Assembly (NCBI GenBank): GCA_030625085.1 | Contig: DAOURK010000029.1 | Coordinates: 1-38,447 of the forward strand | Direction of reading: 5' to 3' | Source: Pseudomonadota bacterium | Lineage (GTDB): Bacteria > SZUA-182 > DTGQ01 | DNA length: 38,447 bases | Part shown: positions 1,148 to 25,104 of the stretch, piece after piece | Layout of the letters: every line of letters starts with the position of its first letter | How positions within the stretch are numbered: position 1 is the first letter of the stretch | Notes under the pieces: generated by a model | Database searches by the model: none | What the model was told of the DNA's origin: nothing | Seen by the model: only the letters and a program-made list of their open reading frames with translations | Position numbers and translations under genes: made by a program

Positions 1148-1363
1148 ACATTATTTATAACAGATCTTAAATTATATATTTGAAAAATGCAGACAATAGA
1201 GCAACCCAAAATAACTCAATCGGATTTTATTCAATTCCTTGAATATAAAAAATTCAAGGATCAAGGTGGTTCTATTGCTGATTTGACTTATTCCCCCCTG
1301 ACAGATAAAATCCCTGATAGCGCGCAAAACTATCTAAATAATCTATCAGGGGAGGAACCATGC

Positions 1364-2551
1364 ATGAAAGGGGCAATTCGTAGTTTACAAAGTAAGTGTC
1401 CAAAATGTAAGGGGAAATTTGTTGATACTGGCAGGGCGCTTGTCTGTCCTACCTGTTTAGTTATTCCCGAGAAATATTTTGTGGATATCCACTATGAGGG
1501 CCAAAGGGTAAAACTTTACCGGGACAAAGAGGGATTTTTATTAGATGCATATCGGAGGGCCAGCCGGCTATTAGAACATATCCGGTATCAAATAGATAAT
1601 CATACGTTTTATTTGAAGGATTATCTTTCAGTTAATATCAAAGGGGTACAATTTGAAAATAATATTAATGAGTGGTTAAAGAGGCAGGAAATCAGGCTAC
1701 AAAAAGATGAAATTGCACCATCATATTATGAAAAAATTGTATCCATAGTAAATAAATATTTTATTCCCTTTTTCAAAACAAAAGATATAAGGGATGTTCG
1801 TTCAAAAGATGTTGAGGATTTTTATTTAAAACTCCCAACTTTAGCCTTAAAAACTCAAAAAAATATAGTTGATTTATTACATAAATATTTCAATGACTTG
1901 TTGGATAGGGAGGAAATAAGCAGAATCCCTAAGGTTCCTAAAATAACTGTTCCTGATCCTCATTGGAATTGGGTTGCAGAAGATCTGCAAAATATGATTT
2001 TTGATAAAATATCTGATGAGCATAAGCCTATTTTTGCTTTCATAAAAGAACATGGACTTAGACCTTCAGAAGGACGAGCAATTCATAAAGAGGACATTCA
2101 CTTTGAGAATGGAACGGCAACAATAAGGCGTAATTTTTCAAATGAGCAATTACGATTAATAACGAAAAATAAAAGACAGAGAATAATCCCGATTCAAAAA
2201 GATGTACTTGCTATGCTAAAAAAATTACCCGTTCTTAATGGCTTTTTATTCTTAGATGAAAACGGCAAACGGTATAAGAAAAGAAAATTGGAAAGGATTT
2301 ATAATAAGGCCAGGGATGCAGCAGGCATTAAAAATCTTACGTTGTATCAATGGGGCCGTCATTCTTTTGCGAGCCAGGCAATAAACAACGGTATACCTGA
2401 AAATATTGTTGGGGCATTTTTGGGGCATTCTGATAGCAGAATGACAAAACGATATGCACACACAAATATTGAGGGATTAAAAATAATATTTAATAAAAAA
2501 AGTGTCCGTGGATCGTCCGTGGTAAAGATGAAGGGTAAGACAAGTGATTGA
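1364..2551 (+). CDS. tyrosine recombinase / integrase with N-terminal zinc ribbon
   Basis: Site-specific recombinase expected to integrate and excise the element at the tRNA site 26 bases downstream. The protein opens with two CPxC knuckles (CPKCKGK and CPTC), a zinc ribbon, then an alpha-helical core-binding domain, then the catalytic domain with Arg in HGLRPSEGR, a Lys-rich beta turn (KNKRQR), the Arg box QWGRHSF, His in LGHSDSR and the nucleophile Tyr in KRYAHTN. The usual first His of the HxxR box is Gln here. I chose ATG 1364 because GGGGAGG lies 8 bases before it and integrases of this type commonly begin just ahead of the zinc ribbon. The frame stays open upstream to ATG 1187 (454 residues), but that start has no ribosome binding site. 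Confidence 0.9.
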   Translation: MKGAIRSLQSKCPKCKGKFVDTGRALVCPTCLVIPEKYFVDIHYEGQRVKLYRDKEGFLLDAYRRASRLLEHIRYQIDNHTFYLKDYLSVNIKGVQFENNINEWLKRQEIRLQKDEIAPSYYEKIVSIVNKYFIPFFKTKDIRDVRSKDVEDFYLKLPTLALKTQKNIVDLLHKYFNDLLDREEISRIPKVPKITVPDPHWNWVAEDLQNMIFDKISDEHKPIFAFIKEHGLRPSEGRAIHKEDIHFENGTATIRRNFSNEQLRLITKNKRQRIIPIQKDVLAMLKKLPVLNGFLFLDENGKRYKKRKLERIYNKARDAAGIKNLTLYQWGRHSFASQAINNGIPENIVGAFLGHSDSRMTKRYAHTNIEGLKIIFNKKSVRGSSVVKMKGKTSD

Positions 2552-4433: not shown

Positions 4434-5141
4434 ATGATGGCCGCTATCCATCAGCCGCAGTATATCCCATGGCTTGGATATATGAACAAGATTGCCACCG
4501 CGGATATATTTATCTTTTTGGACACCGTCCAGTTTAAGAAAAACGAATGGCAGAATAGGAACAGGATTAAAACTGCCGGAGGATGGCAATGGATGACTGT
4601 GCCTGTTTGCTATCATTATCCGGAAAAGATCTCAGAGGTTAAAATTAATAATACAGAAAGATGGAGAGAGAAACACTGGCAGGCACTCGTCACCAACTAT
4701 AGTCGAGCCCCTTATTTTTATACTTATGCTGATTTTTTTCGCGATACCTTTGACAGGGCATGGGACCTGTTGACAGATCTAAGTATTCACATAATCACAT
4801 TTCTGGCCGGCATTTGGGATTTAAAGGCCAATATAGTGAGGACGTCACAACTTGGACTAAACCATGAAGATCCCACAGGTCGGCTGGTGGTCATATGTAA
4901 GACATTAGGTGCTGATGTATACCTTTCAGGGAAGGATGGACCGAACTATATGAATATCGATCAATTTGGCGATAACAAAATTAAGGTCTGTTATCAGGAA
5001 TTTTGTTCTGAAATATATCCTCAGTTGTTTGAAGGATTTATACCGGATCTGTCGAGTATAGATCTCCTTTTTAATTGCGGACCAATGGGGAAAAAGATCA
5101 TCGAGGGTTATTATGGTAGATCTACAGGGAAAAAGGATTAA
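4434..5141 (+). CDS. WbqC-family protein
   Basis: A 235-residue protein opening with AIHQPQYIPWLGY, the signature of the WbqC-like family, followed by the IFLDTVQFKKNEWQNRNRI block and a C-terminal DLLFNCGP motif, so it is complete. Family members occur in O-antigen and capsule loci and in clusters making amino-modified sugars; their precise reaction is not firmly established and they are often described as putative acyl- or aminotransferases. It is the first gene of the polysaccharide locus. Start is one of two adjacent ATGs at 4434 and 4437. Its last 29 bases overlap the next reading frame, whose start ATG 5113 lies inside it. Confidence 0.85.
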   Translation: MMAAIHQPQYIPWLGYMNKIATADIFIFLDTVQFKKNEWQNRNRIKTAGGWQWMTVPVCYHYPEKISEVKINNTERWREKHWQALVTNYSRAPYFYTYADFFRDTFDRAWDLLTDLSIHIITFLAGIWDLKANIVRTSQLGLNHEDPTGRLVVICKTLGADVYLSGKDGPNYMNIDQFGDNKIKVCYQEFCSEIYPQLFEGFIPDLSSIDLLFNCGPMGKKIIEGYYGRSTGKKD

Positions 5142-6316
5142 AAGGGACAAATCTATAAATGTACTAGTGGGTTTGGCCTGGATTGCCAAAAATGCTTATT
5201 ACCAAGAAAACGAAGAATTGGGTCTTTTGAGAAAAACTCCTCTTAATCCCTATATTATCGGCTATATTGTTGTTTGCTTTTTTTGCACAGGTATGGGTAT
5301 GATTGCCGACAGAGTAAATATAAAGACGGGTTTCTTTTTTGTTTTAAAATATTTTGAATATATTATTGTCTATTTTATTTTGGTAAATCACCTCCATCAT
5401 AAAAAACAGGTTAAAAACTATACTACGGTCATTCTTTTGACCTGTCTGATAGTGTGTATTGTGGCTGCCATGCAAATACCCGGAGGAATGCGCGTTACAG
5501 CGCCCTTTGAAGGAGCGCACGGCGAACCGAATACCCTTGGGATACCTGATCCTTATGCTCTCCATAGTCCTCGGATTTTTTTTTACCATGGACTCATTAT
5601 TCCTGAGAAGTGTTTTGGGAGCATTTTCCATAATCATCACTATTGTCTTAACATATACCTTATCAAGAACTTCCTGGATAGCCGCTGTGCCGGCAATCCT
5701 CTGTTTAGTAGTATTACTGAAGGGTACCCAAAGGGTGGTGGCTTTACTCATAATGATAGCTGCCATAACGATTCTGGTCTTAGTTGTTCCGCAAAATGTT
5801 AAAAAGAGGGTCTCGGAGACATTCGTCGATAAGAGAGTCTCGTGGGAACAGGAGTCGCTATTTGGCTATAATTTTGATCAATCGACTTCAGCCAGGATAT
5901 CCGACTGGAAAAACGGTTTAAGAGATTGGCTGGAAAATCATTTTCTATTCGGCTATGGAGTCACCGGTTATTCCTTTATGGATGCCCAGTACGTTAAGGT
6001 AGCTGTTGAAACGGGAATAATCGGACTCATTGCCTTTGTATTACTTATCACAGCTATCTTTAAACATGTCTGGCTTTCCTATAAAAATGTGCAGTCTCCC
6101 TTTTTTAAGGGATTATCACTTGGCTACATCGCCGGTCTGGTTGGTCTGCTTTTTCATTCTTTAGGAACCAATGCCTTTATCATTGTGCGAATCATGGAAC
6201 CTTTTTGGTTCCTTACAGGAATGGTTATTATGCTGCCCGAACTGGAAAATAAGGCCGATGAAGATGATTCAGCCGCTCAATACAAGGAGTTACCTTTTTT
6301 AGGTTCCAGGTTTTAA
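5113..6316 (+). pseudogene. Wzy/WaaL-like O-antigen polymerase or ligase, truncated and frameshifted
   Basis: Two frames together encode one integral membrane protein of the O-antigen ligase/polymerase (Wzy_C) family. The first frame (from ATG 5113) carries TPLNPYIIGY, LKYFEYIIVYF and the EGAHGEPNTLG motif. The continuation from GYLILM onward, including SRTSWIA and the periplasmic loop with RISDWKNGLRDW, is in another frame up to 6316. The break is at about 5540, where GEPNTLG should run into GYL; loss of two bases explains it. The N-terminus also lacks the first membrane helices usual in the family. Either this is a real pseudogene or the frameshift is a sequence error; the N-terminal shortening would remain. 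Neighbouring Wzm/Wzt export would not need a Wzy polymerase. Confidence 0.75.
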
Positions 6317-6463
6317 GGGAAAGATTCGAGTGAGCGATAAAGCCAAGGGACTGTTATTATGTCATTTCGAGCACATTCACAACGTTCAGTGTAAACTCCG
6401 CGAGAAATTTAAAGGGTTCCTCCTTTCTCGTTGAATTGGTTTTTAAATTTTTGGGATAATGTT

Positions 6464-7186
6464 ATGGTAAAAATTACAGCTCTTTTGCCTATGAAAGGAC
6501 ACTCGGAACGTATACCAAATAAAAACATGCGCCTATTTTACGGTAGACCGCTTTATTATCAAATCATAGAAACCTTGTCATCATCAAATTACATTTCAGA
6601 TATTGTAATAAATACAGATAGCCCGGTAATAGCTGAAAATGCCATCCGGCATTTTGATCAAATAAAAATCCTTAACCGTCCAAAAGAACTTCAGGGTGAT
6701 TCCGTCCCCATGAATGATATAATCGCTCATGACCTTTCACAATTAAATGGAGAGCATTTTTTGCAAACCCATAGCACCAATCCTTTGTTAACCACAACTA
6801 CCATTGAAGAGGCAATCAATTCTTATTTCGAGAACCTATATCAATACGATTCTCTTTTTTCAGTGACACGTCTTCAGAGCAGGCTCTATTGGAAGGATGG
6901 GCGACCTATAAATCATGATCTTCAGGAATTACTCAGAACACAAGATTTGTCCCCTCTGTTTGAGGAGAACTCTAACCTATATATTTTTTCAAAAAAATCG
7001 TTCAAAAGAGCAGGAAACAACAGAATAGGTTTAAAAACCCAAATGTTTGAGATAGACAAATGTGAAGCGATTGATATTGACGAAGAAAGGGATTTCAAAC
7101 TCGCAGAAATCCTTTACCAAATGAGTCATGCTCAGAAGGAAAGAGTGAAAATAGATCGAAGGAGTAAACGTTACCAATGTCTTTAA
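6464..7186 (+). CDS. CMP-sugar synthetase (acylneuraminate cytidylyltransferase family)
   Basis: A 240-residue cytidylyltransferase. The N-terminal nucleotide-binding loop reads LLPMKGHSERIPNKNMR (residues 8-23), with VINTDSP at 48-54 and QTHSTNPLL further on, as in NeuA and KdsB relatives that transfer CMP from CTP to a 2-keto-3-deoxy sugar acid. ATG 6464 is chosen over an upstream TTG at 6431 because family members begin two or three residues before the first strand. The 3' end overlaps the aldolase gene by 10 bases, so the two are co-translated. No NeuB-type synthase is present. The adjacent aldolase may supply the 2-keto acid substrate, which is an inference from context. Confidence 0.85.
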   Translation: MVKITALLPMKGHSERIPNKNMRLFYGRPLYYQIIETLSSSNYISDIVINTDSPVIAENAIRHFDQIKILNRPKELQGDSVPMNDIIAHDLSQLNGEHFLQTHSTNPLLTTTTIEEAINSYFENLYQYDSLFSVTRLQSRLYWKDGRPINHDLQELLRTQDLSPLFEENSNLYIFSKKSFKRAGNNRIGLKTQMFEIDKCEAIDIDEERDFKLAEILYQMSHAQKERVKIDRRSKRYQCL

Positions 7187-7938
7187 AACAAAAACTTAGC
7201 GAAAAGCAAGTAACAATAGGCTCATGGATAACCCTTGGGCATCCCTCCATCGCAGAAATTATGGCCAAAGCCGGGTATGATTGGCTCACAGTGGATATGG
7301 AACATAGCGCTATAACCTTACATCAGACCCAACAACTAATCCAAGTTATAGAGCTGTCAGGATGTGCGCCGCTTGTTCGTGTAGGAGAGAATAATCCCAA
7401 TCTTATCAAACGTGTTATGGACACAGGCGCCCATGGTGTAATCGTACCCATGGTCAATACAAAAGAGGAAGCTGAAAAAGCGGTTGCTTCGGTAAAATAT
7501 CCACCCAAGGGTTTCAGAGGTGTAGGTCTTGCTCGAGCACAGAAATACGGCTCTGACTTTGAAGGCTATAAAGATTGGAACAATACTGAAAGTATTGTTG
7601 TGGTTCAAATAGAACATATAAAAGCGGTTGAAAATCTCGAGGCGATATTATCTGTAGATGGTGTGGATGCTTTCATCATTGGTCCTTATGACCTTTCAGG
7701 GTCACTTGGCGTACCCGGTCAATTTGACCACCCTGACATGCTGGCTGCCTTGGCAAGGATTAAAGAAGTTTCTCAAAACCTAAAAGCAGTCTCCGGATTT
7801 CATGTGATTCCACCGGATGTGGATGCCCTTAAGAAGAAGGTCAAAGAGGGTTACAAATTTATTGCCCATAGTTTAGATATCTTATTCCTTGGGAACAACT
7901 GTAAAGAGGCATTAAAAATTATTCGGAGTGAACTGTGA
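7177..7938 (+). CDS. HpcH/HpaI-family class II aldolase
   Basis: A 253-residue metal-dependent pyruvate aldolase. Key positions of the E. coli HpaI enzyme are all present: Asp40 and His43 in TVDMEHS, Arg68 in LVRVG, the metal ligands Glu146 in VQIEH and Asp172 in GPYDLSGS. Members reversibly join pyruvate to an aldehyde. Degradative relatives cleave aromatic breakdown products, but here the gene lies inside a sugar locus, overlapping a CMP-sugar synthetase upstream by 10 bases and a dehydrogenase downstream by 4. That context favours a biosynthetic role in building a 3-deoxy-2-keto sugar acid. Family is confident; substrate and direction are inference. Confidence 0.88.
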   Translation: MSLKQKLSEKQVTIGSWITLGHPSIAEIMAKAGYDWLTVDMEHSAITLHQTQQLIQVIELSGCAPLVRVGENNPNLIKRVMDTGAHGVIVPMVNTKEEAEKAVASVKYPPKGFRGVGLARAQKYGSDFEGYKDWNNTESIVVVQIEHIKAVENLEAILSVDGVDAFIIGPYDLSGSLGVPGQFDHPDMLAALARIKEVSQNLKAVSGFHVIPPDVDALKKKVKEGYKFIAHSLDILFLGNNCKEALKIIRSEL

Positions 7939-8867
7939 GTGAAATGTCCATATTAATCACCACTTCATCTTTTGGGCGAGAAGATTCAAGTTGTTTGAAT
8001 ACATTAGAAGATTTAGGCTATGAAATAATACTTAATCATTATAAGCGAAGGCTTACCGAGGCAGAAGTTGGTGAATTGATATTCAAGCATCAGCCGATTG
8101 GAATGATTGCCGGTGTGGAACCTTTAACCCTGAAGGTCCTGAAAATGGCTAAGAATCTCAAAGTGATTTCTCGTTGCGGAATTGGTTTGGACTCGGTTGA
8201 TTTAAAGGCTGCTGCGAACTTAAGAATCGCGGTTATGAACACTCCTGATGCACCAACGATTCCGGTTGCTGAGCTAACCCTGGGGATGATATTGGGGTTG
8301 CTTCGCCGGGTGCATATTATAGATGCCGGTATTCGCCGAGGTGAATGGGAACGTCCCATGGGCTTGTTGCTCCACGGCAAGACAGTGGGAATTGTGGGTT
8401 GTGGCCGGATTGGTTCTTATCTGGCCAGACTGCTCTCCAATTTTGGTTGCCAGGTATTGGGCTTTGATCCATATCTTGATCAACACGAATTTTGTCATAT
8501 GGTTACCCTGGATGCTTTATTGGCCCAATCAGATATAGTATCTCTTCATATTCCTTATTCGAGGGATAATCATCATTTTATTGCTGCCGAACAGTTTAAC
8601 ATTATGAAAAAGGGAGCTATATTGATTAATGCTGCCCGCGGCGGGCTGATAGATGAAAAGGCGCTCTTTACCGCCTTACAAAGGGGTTACCTATGGGGAG
8701 CGGCTTTGGATTGTTACGAGGATGAGCCTTACAAAGGTGAATTAAAGATGCTTCCCAATGTGCTCTTGACTTCCCATATAGGCTCTTATGCCAGGGAAGG
8801 AAGAATTATGATGGAACAGCAGGCTGTGGAAAATTTAATCAATGAATTAGCAAAGTGTAGGGTTTAA
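7935..8867 (+). CDS. D-isomer-specific 2-hydroxyacid dehydrogenase
   Basis: A 310-residue NAD-dependent dehydrogenase of the phosphoglycerate dehydrogenase type. The Rossmann motif is VGIVGCGRIG (residues 151-160). Catalytic Arg235 is in NAARGGLID, the acid in DCYEDEP (about 262-264), and His281 in TSHIGSY. It has only the minimal two-domain form, with no ACT regulatory domain. The GTG start overlaps the aldolase stop (GTGA), giving tight coupling. In this cassette it might reduce or oxidise the 2-keto/2-hydroxy acid made or used by the aldolase, or make a glycerate-type precursor. The actual substrate cannot be read from sequence. Confidence 0.88.
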   Translation: MSEMSILITTSSFGREDSSCLNTLEDLGYEIILNHYKRRLTEAEVGELIFKHQPIGMIAGVEPLTLKVLKMAKNLKVISRCGIGLDSVDLKAAANLRIAVMNTPDAPTIPVAELTLGMILGLLRRVHIIDAGIRRGEWERPMGLLLHGKTVGIVGCGRIGSYLARLLSNFGCQVLGFDPYLDQHEFCHMVTLDALLAQSDIVSLHIPYSRDNHHFIAAEQFNIMKKGAILINAARGGLIDEKALFTALQRGYLWGAALDCYEDEPYKGELKMLPNVLLTSHIGSYAREGRIMMEQQAVENLINELAKCRV

Positions 8868-10632: not shown

Positions 10633-11499
10633 GTGAAGAGTAGGCCTAATAGAGAAAGTGAGAGAGTAGTTATATATGAACCGAATCATATCCTGAAGGC
10701 GGGGATTCGGGTTTGGTCCGAGATGTTTTACGAATTAATAGACTCTTGGGGACTTGTCTGGAGATTAGTCGTTCGTGACATTAGTGCCCGTTATAAGCAG
10801 TCCATTCTTGGAATTCTTTGGACTTTTCTTAATCCTTTAATATTAATGTTCACTTTTATCTGGCTCAAGGGTACCAACGTCCTTCCCATCGGAGAAACAG
10901 CAATGCCCTATGCAGCTTTTGTCTTCTTTGGTCAAATGGTGTGGCTCCTGTTTTCTAAAGGCGTGATGACTTCTGCAGACAGCCTGGTTACTGCAGGGAC
11001 CATGTTGACCAAAATAAACTTTCCGAGGGAGGTCCTTATATTTTCGGCCGTAGGGCAAACAATTTTTGAGTTCTTGATCCGGATACCCTTGTTGTTGATT
11101 GTGTTCGTTTTTGCCGGCTTTATGCCCAAATTAAGCATATTGCTGGTCCCCTTTGTTTTATTGCCGCTATTGTTTCTGGTTATTGGATTGGGATTTTTCG
11201 TTTCCCTTCTCAATGGTATGATTCGGGATGTGGGCAATATATTGGGAATTATTATGAATCTCGGAATGTTCGCTACGCCAGTGGTTTATCCAGCCCCGAC
11301 AAGTTGGCCGATGTCCTTCCTGGTCAACGTCATCAATCCCGTCAGTGGATTTCTTAGTGCAGCCCGGGACTTGACTACAGTAGGATATCTTACTGCTCCT
11401 ATGATTTATGTTTCCTCCGTTATCCTGAGCCTTTTGTTGTTTTTTGTTGGCTGGAGGTTTTTTCACCTGGTTGAACCTAAGATTGCCGAAAGGATATAG
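10633..11499 (+). CDS. wzm: ABC-2 polysaccharide export permease (Wzm type)
   Basis: A 288-residue inner-membrane protein with about six hydrophobic segments after a cytoplasmic N-terminus. The block LVVRDISARYKQSILGILW leading into the first membrane helix is diagnostic of Wzm/KpsM-type exporters of O-antigen, capsule or teichoic acid. The start is GTG. It lies 20 bases before the ATPase gene and forms the exporter with it. It would move undecaprenyl-linked polysaccharide from cytoplasm to periplasm. An exporter of this type makes a Wzx/Wzy system unnecessary for the same polymer. Confidence 0.92.
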   Translation: MKSRPNRESERVVIYEPNHILKAGIRVWSEMFYELIDSWGLVWRLVVRDISARYKQSILGILWTFLNPLILMFTFIWLKGTNVLPIGETAMPYAAFVFFGQMVWLLFSKGVMTSADSLVTAGTMLTKINFPREVLIFSAVGQTIFEFLIRIPLLLIVFVFAGFMPKLSILLVPFVLLPLLFLVIGLGFFVSLLNGMIRDVGNILGIIMNLGMFATPVVYPAPTSWPMSFLVNVINPVSGFLSAARDLTTVGYLTAPMIYVSSVILSLLLFFVGWRFFHLVEPKIAERI

Positions 11500-11519: not shown

Positions 11520-12734
11520 ATGTCTGATGTTTTAGTCAAAGCGGAAGGCGTCACCAAGAAGTTTTGTAAGTCCATAAAACATTTGATGTTTTATGGGATG
11601 GCGGACATTGGACGAGATATGCTTGGAATGTCCTCAAAGACCGATGAATTGAGATCCAATGAGTTTTGGGCTAATGAAAATATATCTTTTGAGTTAAGGC
11701 GCGGAGAATGTCTGGGGCTTATTGGCCCGAACGGCACAGGAAAATCAACACTGCTGAAAATATTGAGCGGAATTATCTCCCCTGACAAAGGCCAGGTGGA
11801 AATTAGAGGAAGGGTAGGTGCACTTATACAATTAGGTGCCGGATTTCACCCCATACTCACCGGAAGGGAAAATATCTATATCAACGGCTCGATCCTTGGA
11901 TTCAGTAAAAAAGAGATAGACAAAAAATTTGATAAAATTGTCGATTTTGCTGAATTACAGGATTTTATTGATACTCCTGTCAAACATTACAGTTCCGGGA
12001 TGCATGTCCGTCTTGGGTTTGCTATCGCCGCGCAAATGGAACCGGATGTCTTGCTTATTGATGAGGTGCTGGCGGTAGGTGATGCCGGATTCAGGGCTAA
12101 ATCATTCAATGCCATAACAGAGATTTCGAGGAACGCTGCTGTTATTTTTGTATCACATACAATGCCGATGGTTGCTCGTATCTGTTCTAAGGTTATGGTA
12201 ATGGCACAGGGGCAGAGTATTTATCAGGGTGAAGATGTTCCTTTTGGAATAGAAGAATATTTTGGATTGTTTCAACAGGAAAAAACCCAAGTTATTGGAA
12301 AACAAACTGTCAAATTGCTCAACATCACCATCAATGGGATAGCTGATCCAAAGGCTGTTTCGAAAATATATTATCTGGATGATCTTGTAATTGAGTTGGA
12401 ATATTTAATGGAAGAATATACTGATGAATACTCAGTAAGTATTGCCATTTTCGATAAAACTTTACGATGCGTTGCGCAGGCCCTTTCACGTGCAGTCGGA
12501 AAAATTTTTAAGAACTCAAATAAAAAACAAACTCTTAAAATTATAATACCTCGCCAAATATTAAATGTCGGGACTTACAGCCTTTCTATTCATTTTGTGG
12601 CAAATTCCTCCGGTGATGGATACCGAGGAGATAAAATATTAACCCATTTTCAAGCAATAAGAAGCTTTAAGGTCGGCGGGCATATTGTTGGCCATGCACC
12701 TATTCAGCTTGAAGCGCATTGGGAACACCAATGA
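11520..12734 (+). CDS. wzt: ABC polysaccharide export ATPase with C-terminal domain (Wzt type)
   Basis: A 404-residue ATPase. Walker A is GPNGTGKS (69-76), the Q-loop region is LIQLGAGFHP, the signature is HYSSGMHV (156-163), Walker B is DVLLIDE (to 182) and the switch His is in FVSHTMP. Residues about 260-404 form an extra beta-rich domain like the Wzt C-terminal carbohydrate-binding domain, which in E. coli O9a reads a modified non-reducing end before export. Its presence suggests that this polymer also carries a terminal cap. The sulfotransferase or the SAM-domain fusion downstream could make such a cap; that last step is inference. The stop overlaps the next start in ATGA. Confidence 0.92.
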   Translation: MSDVLVKAEGVTKKFCKSIKHLMFYGMADIGRDMLGMSSKTDELRSNEFWANENISFELRRGECLGLIGPNGTGKSTLLKILSGIISPDKGQVEIRGRVGALIQLGAGFHPILTGRENIYINGSILGFSKKEIDKKFDKIVDFAELQDFIDTPVKHYSSGMHVRLGFAIAAQMEPDVLLIDEVLAVGDAGFRAKSFNAITEISRNAAVIFVSHTMPMVARICSKVMVMAQGQSIYQGEDVPFGIEEYFGLFQQEKTQVIGKQTVKLLNITINGIADPKAVSKIYYLDDLVIELEYLMEEYTDEYSVSIAIFDKTLRCVAQALSRAVGKIFKNSNKKQTLKIIIPRQILNVGTYSLSIHFVANSSGDGYRGDKILTHFQAIRSFKVGGHIVGHAPIQLEAHWEHQ

Positions 12735-13759
12735 ACTGGATAAAAATAGATAAAAAGAAGATCGGGCAAAAGTCATACTCAGATTCTATTTTAGGGGTGC
12801 CTTGCAGCCTATCCGGCCTAGTACTGTTCACAAGAGAAATCTATAAAAAAGTATCTCAAATATTTTTTCTGATTCCATTGGATTTACGTAATTACAGAAG
12901 CTTTGCCGGCCTAAATCGACTCTACAGCCGAAAAAAAATTCTCGATAGATCTCCCTATAAAAATATCTATCATTGCTGTACTCAAAAAACCGCTAGTCAG
13001 TGGTTCAAAAAAATTTTTTCTGATCCCATAGTTTATCAATATACAGGGCTTGAAGTTTTTCCTTTTGAAAGTCTCTTCGATCAACTACAAAACACTTTCA
13101 AGGATCAGAGCTTACCTAAATATGTGACGATTCCTCCATTATTATATAAAGAATACCCTATTCATCCGGCACCGCCGATATGCACAATCAGTAGCCCTTT
13201 ATATATAAGTTATCTTACGTATCTATCTTTGTCGAGAAAGCAAAAGCATAAGACTTTTTTTGTTTTACGAGATCCACGGGATATTGTTATATCATGGTAT
13301 TTTTCTGTAAAATACTCACATGGCTCAATAGGGCTTATCTCTACATTTCGAGATGACTTAGAAAAATTAAGCCTTGCCGAGGGATTGTGTTATTCCATTG
13401 ACAAACTTGAAGAAAGGGGAATATTTTTCGGTCAGAGGTCATGGATGAATATTTCAGAGGATAAGGAAAATATCAGAATTTTTCGATATGAGGATCTAGT
13501 TTTTGACAATAGGTCTTTCTTAAGGCAACTGTTCGATTACTTAAATATCGTAATACCGGAAAAGCGATTTTTGGAATTGTATGAGCGGTATAAATTCGAA
13601 AAACTTTCAGGGGGGAGAAAGCAGGGGGTAACAGAAATAAACTCGCACTATCGTAAAGGGGTGGCAGGGGATTGGATGAACTATTTTGATAATGCTATTA
13701 TGACGCATTTTAGGCAAGTGACAGGGGATCTCTTAGAAGTGTTGGGATATAGTGAATGA
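12731..13759 (+). CDS. sulfotransferase-family protein
   Basis: A 342-residue protein with PAPS-dependent sulfotransferase motifs. The 5'-phosphosulfate loop is YHCCTQKTASQWFKK (about residues 80-94), and the 3'-phosphate site is FFVLRDPRDIVISW (about 175-190), with a C-terminal GGRKQG and KGVAGDW segment typical of the cytosolic-type fold. ATG 12731 is preferred because it overlaps the Wzt stop (ATGA); an in-frame TTG at 12719 lies inside wzt. It probably sulfates the polysaccharide or its cap before export. The acceptor is unknown. Confidence 0.85.
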   Translation: MNWIKIDKKKIGQKSYSDSILGVPCSLSGLVLFTREIYKKVSQIFFLIPLDLRNYRSFAGLNRLYSRKKILDRSPYKNIYHCCTQKTASQWFKKIFSDPIVYQYTGLEVFPFESLFDQLQNTFKDQSLPKYVTIPPLLYKEYPIHPAPPICTISSPLYISYLTYLSLSRKQKHKTFFVLRDPRDIVISWYFSVKYSHGSIGLISTFRDDLEKLSLAEGLCYSIDKLEERGIFFGQRSWMNISEDKENIRIFRYEDLVFDNRSFLRQLFDYLNIVIPEKRFLELYERYKFEKLSGGRKQGVTEINSHYRKGVAGDWMNYFDNAIMTHFRQVTGDLLEVLGYSE

Positions 13760-13849: not shown

Positions 13850-16504
13850 ATGGAAAATCCTTGCAAGATCCTGTGCTTTGGAGATTCGATGACAGTAAGA
13901 TATGCGCCGATATTTGAACAACGATTCAAACAGTCATTTCCTGACATTGAAGCGACCATAGTTAATGGTGGTGTTTCAGGCGAAACTTCAAGGGATGGTC
14001 TGCAAAGACTCCCTCAAATGCTGGCTGAAAAGCCTAATATTGTAATAATCTGTTTTGGAATGAACGACAGGGGGGCAGGGAAAAAAGCGCATAAACGTGT
14101 GCCACAATCTGAATTCGTCCAAAATCTCACCCGAATAATCTCGGCCTTTGAGGACATAGGCGCACGTATTCTGTTGTTAACTATTAATCCCCTTGCCGAA
14201 TCTTCTGGAAGCCTGGGTGATCGTATGATAGATGCCTATAATAAAGCGATACATGATGGCGCTTACAAGACAAAAGTGCGATTAGTTGACATCAATGCGA
14301 TGTGGAAACGCGAATTCAAGCCCTTTAGCAAAGGTTTAGAAGACACCCTTCACCCTAACAAAAGAGGTATTGAACTATATAGCAAAGCATTGAAGCTTAC
14401 AGTTCCAAGAAGAAATATTATTGTGCTATGGCAGTATAATGGCAATCCTTGTGCCTGTAATTATAAGTGCCCTTACTGTGTTTATAGGCATGTTCAACAA
14501 GGACAGCATTTTCAGGGTACAGTCGAAGGCTGGCACCATGCATTCAAAAAATCTTTTGGAAACCAACATATCGCCTTCTATCTGGCACATGGAGAGCCCA
14601 TGATTGGGGAAAATTTTTATGATGTTCTTGAAATGGTTGGAAATGAATCCAATTGGGAAATCCGGATGACGAGCAATATATCCATATCATTAAATGATTT
14701 GGTCAAAACGCGGGTAGCCCAAGAAGGCAGATTAAATATCAATGCCTCTTTTCATCCATACATGGTTAAGAGAGAAAAATTCCTTGACCAGGCCCTTTTC
14801 CTCAGAAAGCACGGTATTGAGGTGCCTATAATCTATGTAATGTATCCCCCCCTATTAAAGCGATTTGAGGACGACTTTAAATTTTTTAATGCGCATAACT
14901 TCCTTGTTCATGTACGAAGGTTCCGCGGTACACATAAAGGTAAGGTATATCCCAAGGCATATACTGATGAGGAGCAACAATTTATTGCTAAGTATTGTGA
15001 TGATGCGACCATCAAGTATATGCTTTTTAACGAGCCAAGTTATGGTAAGCAGTCCTGGGCCGGTGTTGATTTCGTGATTGTAGATAATAAGGGCAACGTG
15101 GGGTATTGTGATGATTTCAGACCCAACAAGCACGCACTTGGTAATATTTTCAAAGGCAATTTCAGACGCCATACTGAACCAAAACCTTTCCCAGGCCGTT
15201 TCACCTCGGATGGTACAGTAGATGGCGTCGCTAATTTTTTGGAGCTCAATTATCGCCAATTAACTGGTAATAATGTAATTAATTTTTCACGGCAAGGTGG
15301 AGTATATCATACCCCCAATGGCATCTATTATAAAAATATGAATGTTGATTTCAATGATAGCAGGGTGAGGGCAGAGTACCACTTTCCGGCACGAAATCTT
15401 AAAGATGCTTATGCAATTCTTACCTATAAAGAAGATCCCTTCCATAGACGGATTGCACGTCTTGCCCAGTCAGCATATCCTGATATATTCTATTACAATA
15501 AAGTGGTAACTCCAAAGACAGTAGCTGTTTGGATTATTTCACGCATTATAAGGTTTTTTCGTTGTACGAAAATTGTTCAAAAAATTCATCGATTATATCA
15601 GTTTGCCCATTCATATATCCCATACTTTTTTCTTTCAGAAGGGGGATATCTATATGCAAAAATAAATGGATTGAGGGGGATTCAATTTTACACGTTTGGC
15701 CAGCGGTGTGCTTTTAAGTTTCTACATCTCGAAAAGTTAAGATCTTTTTTAACTCTCCTTTTGAATCCGGTCCCCTTGTTTAGATTTGCTGAGTTTGATT
15801 TTGTGATTCGATCTGCAAAATGGAAAGGCAGTATTCGCGTGCTCGATGTGTCATCGCCCAGATTGTTTTCGGCTTATTTATTGGCAACTAATCCTGATTT
15901 GCAACTATATATAACTAATCCGGATAAAAGTGACATTACAAACACCCACGCTTTTCTTAAAACATGTAATTTAGATGGTGAGCGAATTGAATTTCAATGT
16001 CTTCGTGTTGCTGATTTGTCATACCAAAATGGGTTTTTCGATGTTATATACGCTATTAGTGTAATTGAGCATGTTTTAGAAGAGGAACAGAACAATTTTC
16101 TGGCCATACTCTGGAGGTTTCTTAAACCTGGGGGCAAACTTATTTTGACCGTCCCCGTCTCCTCAAAGTATAGGATTGAATATAGAAAAAAGGACGTATA
16201 CTCATTAGGTTATCCTCGAAATGAAAATGGAGCAATTTTTTTCCAAAGAGTGTATGATGCTGCCTCTTTGAAAAAGCAAATCATCGCGCCTATGAAGAAA
16301 CTCCAAGGGCGGCCTGGTCCAATTGAAGTTTTTGGTTTAACTGCAGGATGGAAATTCGAGGAATACTTAAAGCGTTGGGAAAATTTTGGAATAGCGGAAA
16401 CGGCAAAGGATATATATTATGCTTCGAAGTATATACACAAGTTTGATCGGATAGCCCAGTTAAAAGAAAGAGGCGTCTGTGGACTGACCTTTACAAAACC
16501 ATAA
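13850..16504 (+). CDS. three-domain fusion: SGNH hydrolase, radical SAM, SAM methyltransferase
   Basis: An 884-residue protein with three enzyme modules in one frame. Residues 1-185 are an SGNH/GDSL hydrolase: FGDSMT (nucleophile Ser13), Gly44 in GVSGETS, Asn72 in GMND, and Asp165/His168 in DTLHP. Residues about 190-470 are a radical SAM domain with CX3CX2C at Cys203, Cys207 and Cys210, and HGEP (247-250) as the glycine-rich SAM motif. Residues about 650-800 are a class I methyltransferase: VLDVSSPR at 664-671 in place of the glycine-rich loop, then FDVIYAISVIEH (730-741) and FLKPGGKLILTVP (757-769). No signal peptide, so cytoplasmic. It sits between a sulfotransferase and a pyruvyl transferase and likely modifies a sugar or lipid-linked intermediate. 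I know of no standard family with this order. Confidence 0.85.
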   Translation: MENPCKILCFGDSMTVRYAPIFEQRFKQSFPDIEATIVNGGVSGETSRDGLQRLPQMLAEKPNIVIICFGMNDRGAGKKAHKRVPQSEFVQNLTRIISAFEDIGARILLLTINPLAESSGSLGDRMIDAYNKAIHDGAYKTKVRLVDINAMWKREFKPFSKGLEDTLHPNKRGIELYSKALKLTVPRRNIIVLWQYNGNPCACNYKCPYCVYRHVQQGQHFQGTVEGWHHAFKKSFGNQHIAFYLAHGEPMIGENFYDVLEMVGNESNWEIRMTSNISISLNDLVKTRVAQEGRLNINASFHPYMVKREKFLDQALFLRKHGIEVPIIYVMYPPLLKRFEDDFKFFNAHNFLVHVRRFRGTHKGKVYPKAYTDEEQQFIAKYCDDATIKYMLFNEPSYGKQSWAGVDFVIVDNKGNVGYCDDFRPNKHALGNIFKGNFRRHTEPKPFPGRFTSDGTVDGVANFLELNYRQLTGNNVINFSRQGGVYHTPNGIYYKNMNVDFNDSRVRAEYHFPARNLKDAYAILTYKEDPFHRRIARLAQSAYPDIFYYNKVVTPKTVAVWIISRIIRFFRCTKIVQKIHRLYQFAHSYIPYFFLSEGGYLYAKINGLRGIQFYTFGQRCAFKFLHLEKLRSFLTLLLNPVPLFRFAEFDFVIRSAKWKGSIRVLDVSSPRLFSAYLLATNPDLQLYITNPDKSDITNTHAFLKTCNLDGERIEFQCLRVADLSYQNGFFDVIYAISVIEHVLEEEQNNFLAILWRFLKPGGKLILTVPVSSKYRIEYRKKDVYSLGYPRNENGAIFFQRVYDAASLKKQIIAPMKKLQGRPGPIEVFGLTAGWKFEEYLKRWENFGIAETAKDIYYASKYIHKFDRIAQLKERGVCGLTFTKP

Positions 16505-16511
16505 ATATAAG

Positions 16512-17813
16512 GTGCCTATATTGAAAGCACAAAAGATATTAATCGGCGGCAATATATACGGCTGCGGGAACATTGGTGATGATGCGGTCCTGCAAGGTAT
16601 TCTAAATATTGTAAAAAAGGCTGTGCCCGATGGCCAAATAACAATTGCCACAGCCAATGCCCAGAGGCTGAATTACCTCCCTCAAGATGTTAAGATTGTA
16701 AACTCCTATGACTTGGAACAAGTAACACAAGCTATTCGTGCATGTGATTGTTTTATTTCTGGAGGGGGAACAATGATTGGGGATGAGCTGAGCCTCAATT
16801 TTCCCCTCATACACAATGCACGGCGCATTGCAACGGCTAAATATTACGGCAAAGGCGTAGTGATGCTGGGAATTGGTGCGAACCGATTGAAGAACCCGGA
16901 AGGTATAAAAATTGCCGGAATGCTGGTTCGCTTTTCAGATTTAATCACCCTCCGTGATCAAGAGTCCCTTGACGCATGTACCGTTTTAGGTGCGCGACGC
17001 AGGCACACATTTGTGACAGCAGATCCGGCCTTTTTGTTAGGAGCGAAAGAAACTCCAAGGACAAGGACGCTTAAGGCAAGAATTCGAGCCTATGGCAAGG
17101 TGATAGGGGTTAATATAGTTAACGAAGCATGGGCTGATTTGAGAGGATACAAGTCAGCCGTTGCGCAGGCCTGCGATGCCCTCTCAACACGATATGGTTA
17201 CTTCCCGATCTTTTTCTCAAATGAAATCCGCCCAGAAAAAAAATATGATTTTGAGGCCAATCGAGAAACAGCCTCCTTGTTACATTGTGATCACGAGATC
17301 TTAGACCCTGTTTATTATAGACCTGAAGAGATGATTGATATTATTTCATCCTTTGATTGCATCATTGCAATGCGTATGCATGCCTTGATTTTTGCAGCGA
17401 TAACAGGAACACCCTTTGTAGCGGTTTCGCGTGTGGATAAAGTAGATAACTTTATGGAATTTTTTGGTTTTCCAGTTAGCGGAAGGGTTAGTAAGTGTCA
17501 GCCTGAAAAAATCATCGAAGATACAAACCACGTCCTTAACCAGTGGAGCACCTTAAGTCCTGAGGTTGAAAATAGGGTTGCCAGGCAAAAGAGTAAATGC
17601 TGGGAAAATGTGAATTTATTACGTGATGTGTTGCATAATCCTAGGACATACCGGCGCAAAGGAAATAGAAGCTCATTGGGCTATCTTTCTTTTTTGAGTA
17701 GGGAAAACCGCCTAAAGCGCAGGCTAATCCATATGCTGACCAGGAAAATGACCATAACACAAGCCATGAGTAAATTTCTCACCAAGGTAAAAACCACGCA
17801 AAATAGAGTTTAA
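16512..17813 (+). CDS. polysaccharide pyruvyl transferase family protein
   Basis: A 433-residue CsaB/WcaK-type enzyme. The N-terminal strand is GNIYGCGNIGDDAVLQGI, then FISGGGTMIGDE, VVMLGIGAN, RDQESLDAC, TADPAF and the active-site region IAMRMHALIFAA, all in the order of the family. It would transfer an enolpyruvyl group from PEP to a sugar to form a ketal, or act in a related surface-sugar modification. The C-terminal 60 residues are very basic. GTG 16512 is the start used, 7 bases after the fusion gene; a TTG at 16521 is the alternative. Confidence 0.85.
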   Translation: MPILKAQKILIGGNIYGCGNIGDDAVLQGILNIVKKAVPDGQITIATANAQRLNYLPQDVKIVNSYDLEQVTQAIRACDCFISGGGTMIGDELSLNFPLIHNARRIATAKYYGKGVVMLGIGANRLKNPEGIKIAGMLVRFSDLITLRDQESLDACTVLGARRRHTFVTADPAFLLGAKETPRTRTLKARIRAYGKVIGVNIVNEAWADLRGYKSAVAQACDALSTRYGYFPIFFSNEIRPEKKYDFEANRETASLLHCDHEILDPVYYRPEEMIDIISSFDCIIAMRMHALIFAAITGTPFVAVSRVDKVDNFMEFFGFPVSGRVSKCQPEKIIEDTNHVLNQWSTLSPEVENRVARQKSKCWENVNLLRDVLHNPRTYRRKGNRSSLGYLSFLSRENRLKRRLIHMLTRKMTITQAMSKFLTKVKTTQNRV

Positions 17814-23860: not shown

Positions 23861-25104
23861 ATGAGCTTTACAGTAAAATTAAATCAGATAAAAAAGGTCT
23901 TGGGAAAAGATGAACACTTTCAACGGGAAAAAAAATTCCTCTTTTTGAACTTGTTGTTTCTTTAGTTACAGCTTTTTCTGTTACCACAAAGAAGAAATCC
24001 ATTGCTGATGCTCATAGAAATTTTATAAAACATACCGGAAAAGAGATTTCCCGAAGCAGCTTCTGGGATCGGCTTGCCGGTGATAAACTTGCTGATTTTC
24101 TGGAAAAAGCCATTTTAACATTTTCCTTCCACTTCCAACAAAAAGCGCTATCCAAACTCTCGTGGCTATCATCATTTAAAGATATCTATATCTACGATGC
24201 TTCTCCTATCCGACTGCCGGCAGCACTAGCGAACAAATTCCCGGGTAACCGGACTAATCATAGTCCTGCTTGCTTGAAATCAAGTGCCTTGTACAAATTG
24301 AGTGTAAGAGGCGTTCAATGGTTAAAGTGTACAGCTCAAAAGACCCACGATAGTAAAATTATTCCAAATCTGGAACAACTAAAAGATTCATTATTTTTAT
24401 TTGATCTGGGTTATTTTAGTCATACTTTTTTACAAAAATTGGATGAAATCGGCGTTTGGTTTGTTTGTCGTTTGAAGAATAACTCTATCCCGATCATTAC
24501 CCGTGTAGTCAAAGGTGTTGCCAAACGATATATCGGATGTCCTCTTAATAATAATCTTAACCTGAGAGGGCCCATTGTTGAAGTCTGGGCTAAATTATTG
24601 CTTCCGGGTAAAGGATCCATTGAGGTACGTCTCATTGGATTGCGCTTCCCCAAAACTAAACAATATCGTTGGTACGTTACAAATTTGCCGAGTTTAATGC
24701 TCTTGGCTGAATGGATATACCCCATATATCGATTAAGATGGCAAATTGAACTTTTTTTCAAATCAATCAAGTCAATCTTAAATGCTGATCAAATAACTTC
24801 TGAAAATGAAAAGATTGCTTTAGCCATTGTTTACAGTTCTATTCTGGCTTCCCTCATTGCAAGTTCCATAATAATTGAAGAAGCTTTGGTGTTTGCTCAT
24901 ATTGAACTGAAATCTATCACCGCTCAAAGGTTAATGATAGTATTCTCTGTTGTGGCGCAGAATTTAGCTCAGTGTCTCATCTCAAAGGAGATTACCAATA
25001 AATTCTTTCTGAATAAATTAAAATGTCTCTCCTTATCACTCATCTGTCCCAATAGAAAGCATCGCCCAACATCGTTAGAAAGGGTTGTGATGTTAGAGAG
25101 ATAG
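23861..25104 (+). CDS. IS4-family DDE transposase made by -1 frameshifting
   Basis: About 414 residues in two frames. From ATG 23861 (AAAGGAGG upstream) frame 0 runs 34 codons to TAG 23963. At 23929-23935 the heptamer A-AAA-AAA is in the exact phase for -1 slippage, after which the frame reads IPLFELVVSLV and stays open to 25104. The DDE residues are Asp in YIYDASPIRLP, Asp in FLFDLGYFS and Glu in YRLRWQIELFFKSIKS (the IS4 YREK signature). The second frame has no usable start codon before TTG 24274, which would lose the first Asp, so full enzyme requires the shift. A simple A-run indel is the alternative. Confidence 0.85.
23928..23935 (+). promoter_or_regulatory. A8 slippery site for -1 frameshift
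   Basis: Eight A residues after CGGG. Frame 0 reads GAA AAA AAA TTC; slipping back one base gives AAA ATT CCT and enters the transposase frame. The GGG just upstream may help ribosome pausing. Ribosomal slippage and transcriptional slippage on an A-run would both work. Confidence 0.7.

What the first reader, a model, noticed from the sequence alone, without database searches (positions are those of the whole stretch)
13850..16504. SGNH hydrolase, radical SAM and methyltransferase fused in one polypeptide
All catalytic residues of the SGNH domain (Ser13, Gly44, Asn72, Asp165, His168) and the radical SAM cluster cysteines (203, 207, 210) are present in one open frame, followed by a class I methyltransferase whose glycine loop is altered to DVSSPR. 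An acyl-group hydrolase or transferase joined to two SAM-using modules, set between a sulfotransferase and a pyruvyl transferase in an ABC-exported polysaccharide locus, suggests a multi-step glycan capping enzyme. I know of no described enzyme with this architecture.
Basis: partly seen in the sequence, partly recalled or inferred. Interest (0 to 1): 0.8.

Follow-up and report, generated by a model that had tools for sequence, protein, structure and literature searches.

The report
Three-module glycan-modifying enzyme fusion
One bacterial gene joins an ester-cutting, a radical-generating and a methyl-adding enzyme in a single protein inside a sugar-polymer export locus; nothing else with this combination turned up, but the same kinds of enzyme sit as separate neighbouring genes in comparable loci, so it looks like a fused set of tools for finishing a surface sugar polymer.

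Summary
ORF 13850-16504 (884 aa, ATG) is one open frame with an SGNH hydrolase (res ~1-182), a radical SAM core (~188-470) and a class I methyltransferase (~606-884). All named catalytic residues are present. Three corrections. (1) The 'altered' DVSSPR loop is a family trait: six standalone relatives carry D-[VIL]-[GSA]-S-P-K at the same place. (2) The radical SAM module looks like a twitch-type enzyme that has lost 4 of 5 auxiliary-cluster cysteine positions. (3) Related modules often sit in glycan loci and are repeatedly fused to glycan enzymes (GT2, sulfotransferase, TPR, methyltransferase). No second SGNH-rSAM-MT fusion was found in roughly 900 genomes or the plasmid, phage and GTDB scans, none exhaustive. 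Genome G885 carries a homologous exporter (Wzt 48%, Wzm 34%) followed by separate MT, rSAM, pyruvyl transferase and SGNH genes; G002, of the window's own family, has Wzm-Wzt-rSAM-GT-x-MT-pyruvyl transferase. Best reading: a cytoplasmic multi-step tailoring, possibly capping, enzyme for an ABC-exported glycan. Architecture is shown; chemistry, substrate and order of steps are inferred. New variant of a known kind (modular glycan-finishing enzymes).

The parts
13850..16504 (+). SGNH-radical SAM-methyltransferase fusion gene, 884 aa
13850..14395 (+). SGNH/GDSL hydrolase module (res 1-182); S13, G44, N72, D165, H168
   Evidence: Pfam E=6e-24; residues; fold pTM 0.80 and Foldseek to acetyl xylan esterases/TesA
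14411..15259 (+). Radical SAM module with degenerate twitch region (res 188-470)
   Evidence: NCBIfam NF038073 E=2.6e-17, below family cut-off; alignments and HMM
14456..14479 (+). C203-x3-C207-x2-C210 radical SAM [4Fe-4S] motif
   Evidence: Cys in 11 of 11 aligned sequences
15053..15211 (+). Auxiliary-cluster positions: S402, C420 (kept), F447, T452, D454
   Evidence: Cys in 10, 9, 9, 8 and 8 of the 10 relatives
15290..15664 (+). Linker (res 481-605), basic, no family match
15665..16501 (+). Class I methyltransferase module (res 606-884) of a D-x-x-S-P-[KR] loop family
15845..15862 (+). DVSSPR motif I loop (res 666-671)
10633..11499 (+). ABC-2 permease (Wzm-like)
   Evidence: 34% to G885 counterpart
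11520..12734 (+). ABC ATPase (Wzt-like, weak C-terminal Wzt_C match E=0.003)
   Evidence: 48% to G885 counterpart
12719..13759 (+). Sulfotransferase (Sulfotransfer_1)
16512..17813 (+). Polysaccharide pyruvyl transferase (CsaB-like), 7 nt downstream of the fusion

Best explanation
A cytoplasmic, multi-step glycan-tailoring enzyme. SHOWN: three enzyme modules in one chain; catalytic residues of SGNH and the radical SAM core intact; loss of most auxiliary-cluster ligands; position in an ABC-exporter polysaccharide cluster; comparable loci elsewhere with separate MT, rSAM, pyruvyl transferase and (in one) SGNH genes. INFERRED: on a sugar residue of the growing or finished lipid-linked glycan (or its activated precursor) the SGNH module removes an O-acyl (most likely acetyl) group, the radical SAM module abstracts a hydrogen from a sugar carbon with a 5'-deoxyadenosyl radical, and the methyltransferase adds an O-methyl group. 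Without the auxiliary cluster, which twitch enzymes such as BtrN are proposed to use as electron acceptor, the radical step is more likely redox-neutral (epimerisation, rearrangement, elimination) than a net oxidation. Together with the sulfotransferase and pyruvyl transferase this would finish the glycan, plausibly producing the end structure that Wzt recognises before export, as WbdD does in E. coli O9a.
For: Domains and residues. SGNH part is closest in fold to carbohydrate acetyl esterases, and several of its nearest genome relatives are secreted or carbohydrate-associated proteins; the fusion has no strong membrane segment. G885 locus: Wzm-Wzt-MT-rSAM-PS_pyruv-SGNH-GT2 as separate adjacent genes, exporter 34-48% identical to the window's. 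Same-family genome G002: Wzm-Wzt(51%)-rSAM-GT-x-MT-PS_pyruv. rSAM within two genes of PS_pyruv in G063 and Lachnospira eligens too. rSAM relatives are fused to GT2, to a sulfotransferase-like N-terminus with TPR and MT, and to GT2-TPR in a locus with a flagellin gene. Control: 0 of 10 plasmid Wzt-like loci (+-7 kb) had an annotated rSAM, 1 of 10 a pyruvyl transferase. Literature: WbdD kinase-MT terminates chains and its mark is needed for recognition by the transporter (PMC3482155); terminators occur in diverse multimodule proteins (PMC11231755); BtrN, a twitch enzyme, oxidises an aminocyclitol (PMC9012708).
Against: No substrate or product known. The G885 SGNH, MT and pyruvyl transferase are not recognisably homologous to the window's by pairwise BLAST, and its rSAM only at E=7e-4: same kinds of enzyme, not proven orthologues. 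The tree places the window rSAM in no supported clade. Some rSAM relatives lie outside glycan loci. Wzt_C match weak. The single-sequence model of the whole protein is not usable (pLDDT 39). The G885 and G002 loci were found through rSAM, so the co-occurrence is not an unbiased estimate.
Confidence: 0.5

Rival explanations
1. Precursor enzyme rather than finishing enzyme: the fusion makes an unusual deoxy, epimerised or O-methylated sugar at the nucleotide-sugar (e.g. CMP-ulosonate) or monosaccharide level before polymerisation.
For: The cluster has its own sugar-acid route: PseF-like cytidylyltransferase, HpaI-type aldolase, 2-hydroxyacid dehydrogenase in overlapping genes, plus two epimerase/dehydratases. 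The twitch enzyme BtrN acts on a small aminocyclitol (PMC9012708). A cytoplasmic SGNH O-acetylesterase is part of some CMP-sialate synthetases (NeuA; own knowledge, not tested).
Against: Methylation is usually a late step; the gene is grouped with exporter, sulfotransferase and pyruvyl transferase rather than with the sugar-acid genes.
Confidence: 0.25
2. The modules are fused for dosage or localisation only and act on different substrates, possibly with the radical module reduced to a binding or scaffold part.
For: Auxiliary ligands lost; radical SAM Pfam score sub-threshold; rSAM relatives are fused to many different partners.
Against: Core CX3CX2C, the GEP motif and the conserved Asn and His are intact.
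Confidence: 0.15
3. The chain is an accident: a recent in-frame gene fusion or assembly error with no functional meaning.
For: Single occurrence; draft assembly of 247 contigs; mobile elements and a frameshifted gene nearby.
Against: Three modules stay in one frame over 2.65 kb with no stop; SGNH, rSAM and MT genes cluster in a comparable locus.
Confidence: 0.07

Closest known systems
WbdD-type chain terminators (E. coli O9a; K. pneumoniae O7 ORF6)
   Same: Multi-domain protein with a methyltransferase in an ABC-transporter (Wzm/Wzt) polysaccharide locus
   Different: WbdD carries a kinase and coiled coil; here SGNH and radical SAM modules, no kinase found
STM4011 family radical SAM proteins (NF038073)
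   Same: Best family-level match of the radical module, same CNYxCPYC core
   Different: 63 bits against a 200-bit cut-off; no STM4012-4015 neighbours; auxiliary-cluster cysteines lost
BtrN / twitch-domain radical SAM enzymes
   Same: Radical SAM core followed by a twitch-like region; carbohydrate-like substrate in BtrN
   Different: 4 of 5 auxiliary-cluster positions are not Cys
Acetyl xylan esterases / TesA (SGNH hydrolases)
   Same: Fold and catalytic residues (TM-score about 0.63-0.76)
   Different: Fused to radical SAM and MT, probably cytoplasmic
D-x-x-S-P-K methyltransferases of the G285 group (standalone, unnamed)
   Same: Near full-length alignment, same motif I loop
   Different: Standalone, and in four of six cases next to a tex-like gene, not in a glycan cluster
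Sulfotransferase-like-rSAM-TPR-MT protein of G488 (L044)
   Same: A related radical SAM module and a methyltransferase in one chain, near APS kinase and sugar-nucleotide genes
   Different: Sulfotransferase-like N-terminus and TPR instead of SGNH; different MT family (Methyltransf_24)

Membership tests
SGNH hydrolase | GDS, G, GxND and DxxH blocks in the SGNH fold | tested here: met
Radical SAM superfamily | CX3CX2C cluster motif in a homologous core | tested here: met
STM4011 family | Score above curated cut-off (200 bits) | tested here: not met
   63 bits
STM4011 family | STM4012-STM4015 gene neighbours | tested here: not met
   None among the neighbouring genes annotated; present in plasmid STM4011 loci
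Twitch/SPASM radical SAM enzymes | Cysteines ligating an auxiliary Fe-S cluster | tested here: not met
   S402, F447, T452, D454 in place of Cys; only C420 kept
Class I methyltransferase | Methyltransf_11 match over cut-off, motif I region | tested here: met
   DxxSP loop shared by six relatives
WbdD-type terminator | Methyltransferase in a Wzm/Wzt locus | tested here: met
WbdD-type terminator | Kinase domain (O9a type) | tested here: not met
   No kinase match
WbdD-type terminator | Product recognised by the Wzt carbohydrate-binding domain | not testable with these tools
   Wzt_C only E=0.003; needs a binding experiment

The most novel reading that the evidence does not exclude
A single enzyme carries out de-esterification, radical C-H chemistry and methylation on one sugar of an exported polysaccharide, giving an undescribed radical-made glycan end group; the radical SAM modules found fused to or clustered with glycan enzymes would be a largely undescribed set of radical-based glycan-tailoring enzymes.
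Probability: 0.3. Interest if true: 0.8.

Novelty: new variant of a known kind. Interest (0 to 1): 0.52.

Why it matters
No paper describing radical SAM enzymes that modify surface polysaccharides came up in the searches made. The fusion, with its unfused look-alike next to a homologous exporter, names a concrete set of genes (rSAM, MT, SGNH, pyruvyl transferase, Wzm-Wzt) whose product can be tested, and could extend chain-termination and tailoring chemistry for ABC-exported glycans beyond the known methyl, methyl-phosphate and Kdo ends.

Tried and rejected
The search for related loci (GTDB, viral) with the full protein: only SGNH- or MT-only hits, no fusion. Phages: none; plasmids: STM4011 loci and generic SGNH/MT hits only. 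Own genome: no second copy of the fusion. Phylum of 9 held genomes: no homologue of the fusion with the single query. Rfam and tRNA scans of the window: nothing. Single-sequence AlphaFold of 884 aa: pLDDT 39, discarded. Alignment A4 for a viral scan: not conserved enough. 16S to place the organism: none found in the assembly. Considered and rejected: membrane anchor in the linker (top Kyte-Doolittle window 1.33, below usual transmembrane levels); the 'unusual glycine loop' as a novelty (family trait); membership of the STM4011 family.

Full report
OBSERVATION. The ORF 13850-16504 encodes 884 aa from ATG with no stop. HMM scans give SGNH (Lipase_GDSL_2, res 9-173, E=6e-24) and methyltransferase (Methyltransf_11, res 695-766, E=3e-9) above their cut-offs; the radical SAM core is sub-threshold in Pfam (E=0.006) but clear as an STM4011-like match over res 196-446 (E=2.6e-17), itself below that family's cut-off. 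The SGNH part gives a fair model from a six-sequence alignment (pTM 0.80) and is nearest to acetyl xylan esterases and TesA in the PDB. Its closest genome matches include secreted esterases with dockerin-like tails and a long beta-helix-like fusion (the tail and helix labels are read from the sequence, not scanned).

SURROUNDINGS. The gene lies in a run of plus-strand genes: WbqC, an O-antigen-ligase-like gene, a PseF-like cytidylyltransferase, HpaI-type aldolase, 2-hydroxyacid dehydrogenase, epimerase, HAD phosphatase, Wzm-like permease, Wzt-like ATPase, sulfotransferase, the fusion, pyruvyl transferase (7 nt downstream), GT4, epimerase/dehydratase, GT4 and an NKWYS sulfotransferase-like gene.

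METHYLTRANSFERASE. A search of 290 genomes gave one standalone relative (G285, E=9e-11); its phylum gave five more. All six align with the window over most of res 606-884 and carry LD[VIL][GSA]SPK where the window has LDVSSPR, and a shared S-x-[VIL]EH[VI] motif. The loop is therefore ordinary for this family. In four of six cases the standalone gene sits next to a tex-like gene, not in a glycan cluster.

RADICAL SAM MODULE. Relatives are distant (18-27% identity). In an alignment of 11, the three core cysteines are invariant; at the five auxiliary-cluster positions (Cys in 8-10 of 10 relatives) the window has S402, C420, F447, T452 and D454. It thus very probably binds only the radical SAM cluster. 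A tree of 32 modules places the window in no supported group, so no subfamily name is given.

FUSIONS AND UNFUSED COUNTERPARTS. The same kind of module occurs in large chains: GT2-SPASM rSAM-GT2-rSAM (G480, G879), GT2-rSAM-GT2-TPR in a locus with a flagellin-like gene (G632; G655 has a similar locus in which the frame is broken inside the module), an N-terminal GT2-like stretch with rSAM (G080, 540 aa), and a sulfotransferase-like-rSAM-TPR-Methyltransf_24 protein near an APS kinase (G488) (the sulfotransferase, flagellin and G080 GT2 labels are read from the sequence). As separate genes: G885 has Wzm-Wzt-MT-rSAM-PS_pyruv-SGNH-GT2 in one direction, with Wzt 48% and Wzm 34% identical to the window's. 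G002, from the window's own family, has Wzm-Wzt (51%)-rSAM-GT-unknown-MT-PS_pyruv. G063 and Lachnospira eligens have rSAM within two genes of a pyruvyl transferase. In a control of 10 plasmid loci holding a Wzt-like gene, none had an annotated rSAM within 7 kb and one a pyruvyl transferase. The SGNH, MT and pyruvyl transferase proteins of G885 are not alignable with the window's by BLAST, so this is a parallel in kinds of enzyme plus a homologous exporter, not a proven orthologous set. G885 and G002 were found by searching for rSAM, so the figures are not an unbiased rate.

RARITY. No SGNH-rSAM-MT fusion appeared in the own phylum (9 genomes), a domain-wide sample (386 genomes; 337 overlapping, by profile), a phylum sample of 395, a class of 155, 72,556 plasmid records, phages or the peptide-pattern scan of GTDB. 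The last is insensitive below close identity, so 'unique' means 'not found here'.

MECHANISM. What is shown is architecture, intact catalytic residues, lost auxiliary ligands and genomic context. The inferred scheme is de-esterification, radical hydrogen abstraction and O-methylation on a glycan or its precursor in the cytoplasm. BtrN's auxiliary cluster is proposed to accept an electron during a two-electron oxidation (PMC9012708); its absence here favours a redox-neutral radical reaction. For ABC-exported O-antigens the WbdD kinase-methyltransferase terminates the chain and its mark is needed for recognition by the transporter (PMC3482155), and terminators are found in differently assembled multimodule proteins (PMC11231755). 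The window protein would work like such a finishing enzyme; it is not a WbdD (no kinase). Internal tailoring and precursor synthesis remain open.

VERDICT. Confirmed architecture, apparently undescribed, embedded in a recurrent pattern of radical SAM modules joined to or clustered with glycan enzymes. New variant of a known kind; interest 0.52.

Noticed in passing
window 5113-6316: An O-antigen-ligase-like gene is split between two frames (N-terminal half in ORF 5113-5802, Wzy_C half in ORF 5459-6316), suggesting a frameshift or pseudogene.
   Followed up: partly
window 6431-8867: PseF-like cytidylyltransferase, HpaI-type aldolase and 2-hydroxyacid dehydrogenase in overlapping genes: a possible aldolase-based route to a CMP-activated sugar acid instead of the usual PEP-dependent synthase.
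   Followed up: no
L042:9503-13300 and L074:3059-6862: 1265-1267 aa proteins with GT2, SPASM radical SAM, a second GT2-like stretch and a twitch radical SAM module in one chain.
   Followed up: partly
L044:8199-11399: Sulfotransferase-like N-terminus, radical SAM, TPR and Methyltransf_24 in one 1066-aa protein close to an APS kinase gene.
   Followed up: partly
L043:6947-10531: GT2-radical SAM-GT2-TPR protein about 6 kb from a flagellin-like gene; possible radical SAM step in flagellin glycosylation.
   Followed up: no
L030, L031, L032, L035: The D-x-x-S-P-K methyltransferase is repeatedly adjacent to a tex-like gene in the G285 group.
   Followed up: no
window 1187-2551 and 24274-25104: Tyrosine recombinase and IS4-type transposase on either side of the glycan genes; possible mobile or exchanged locus.
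   Followed up: no
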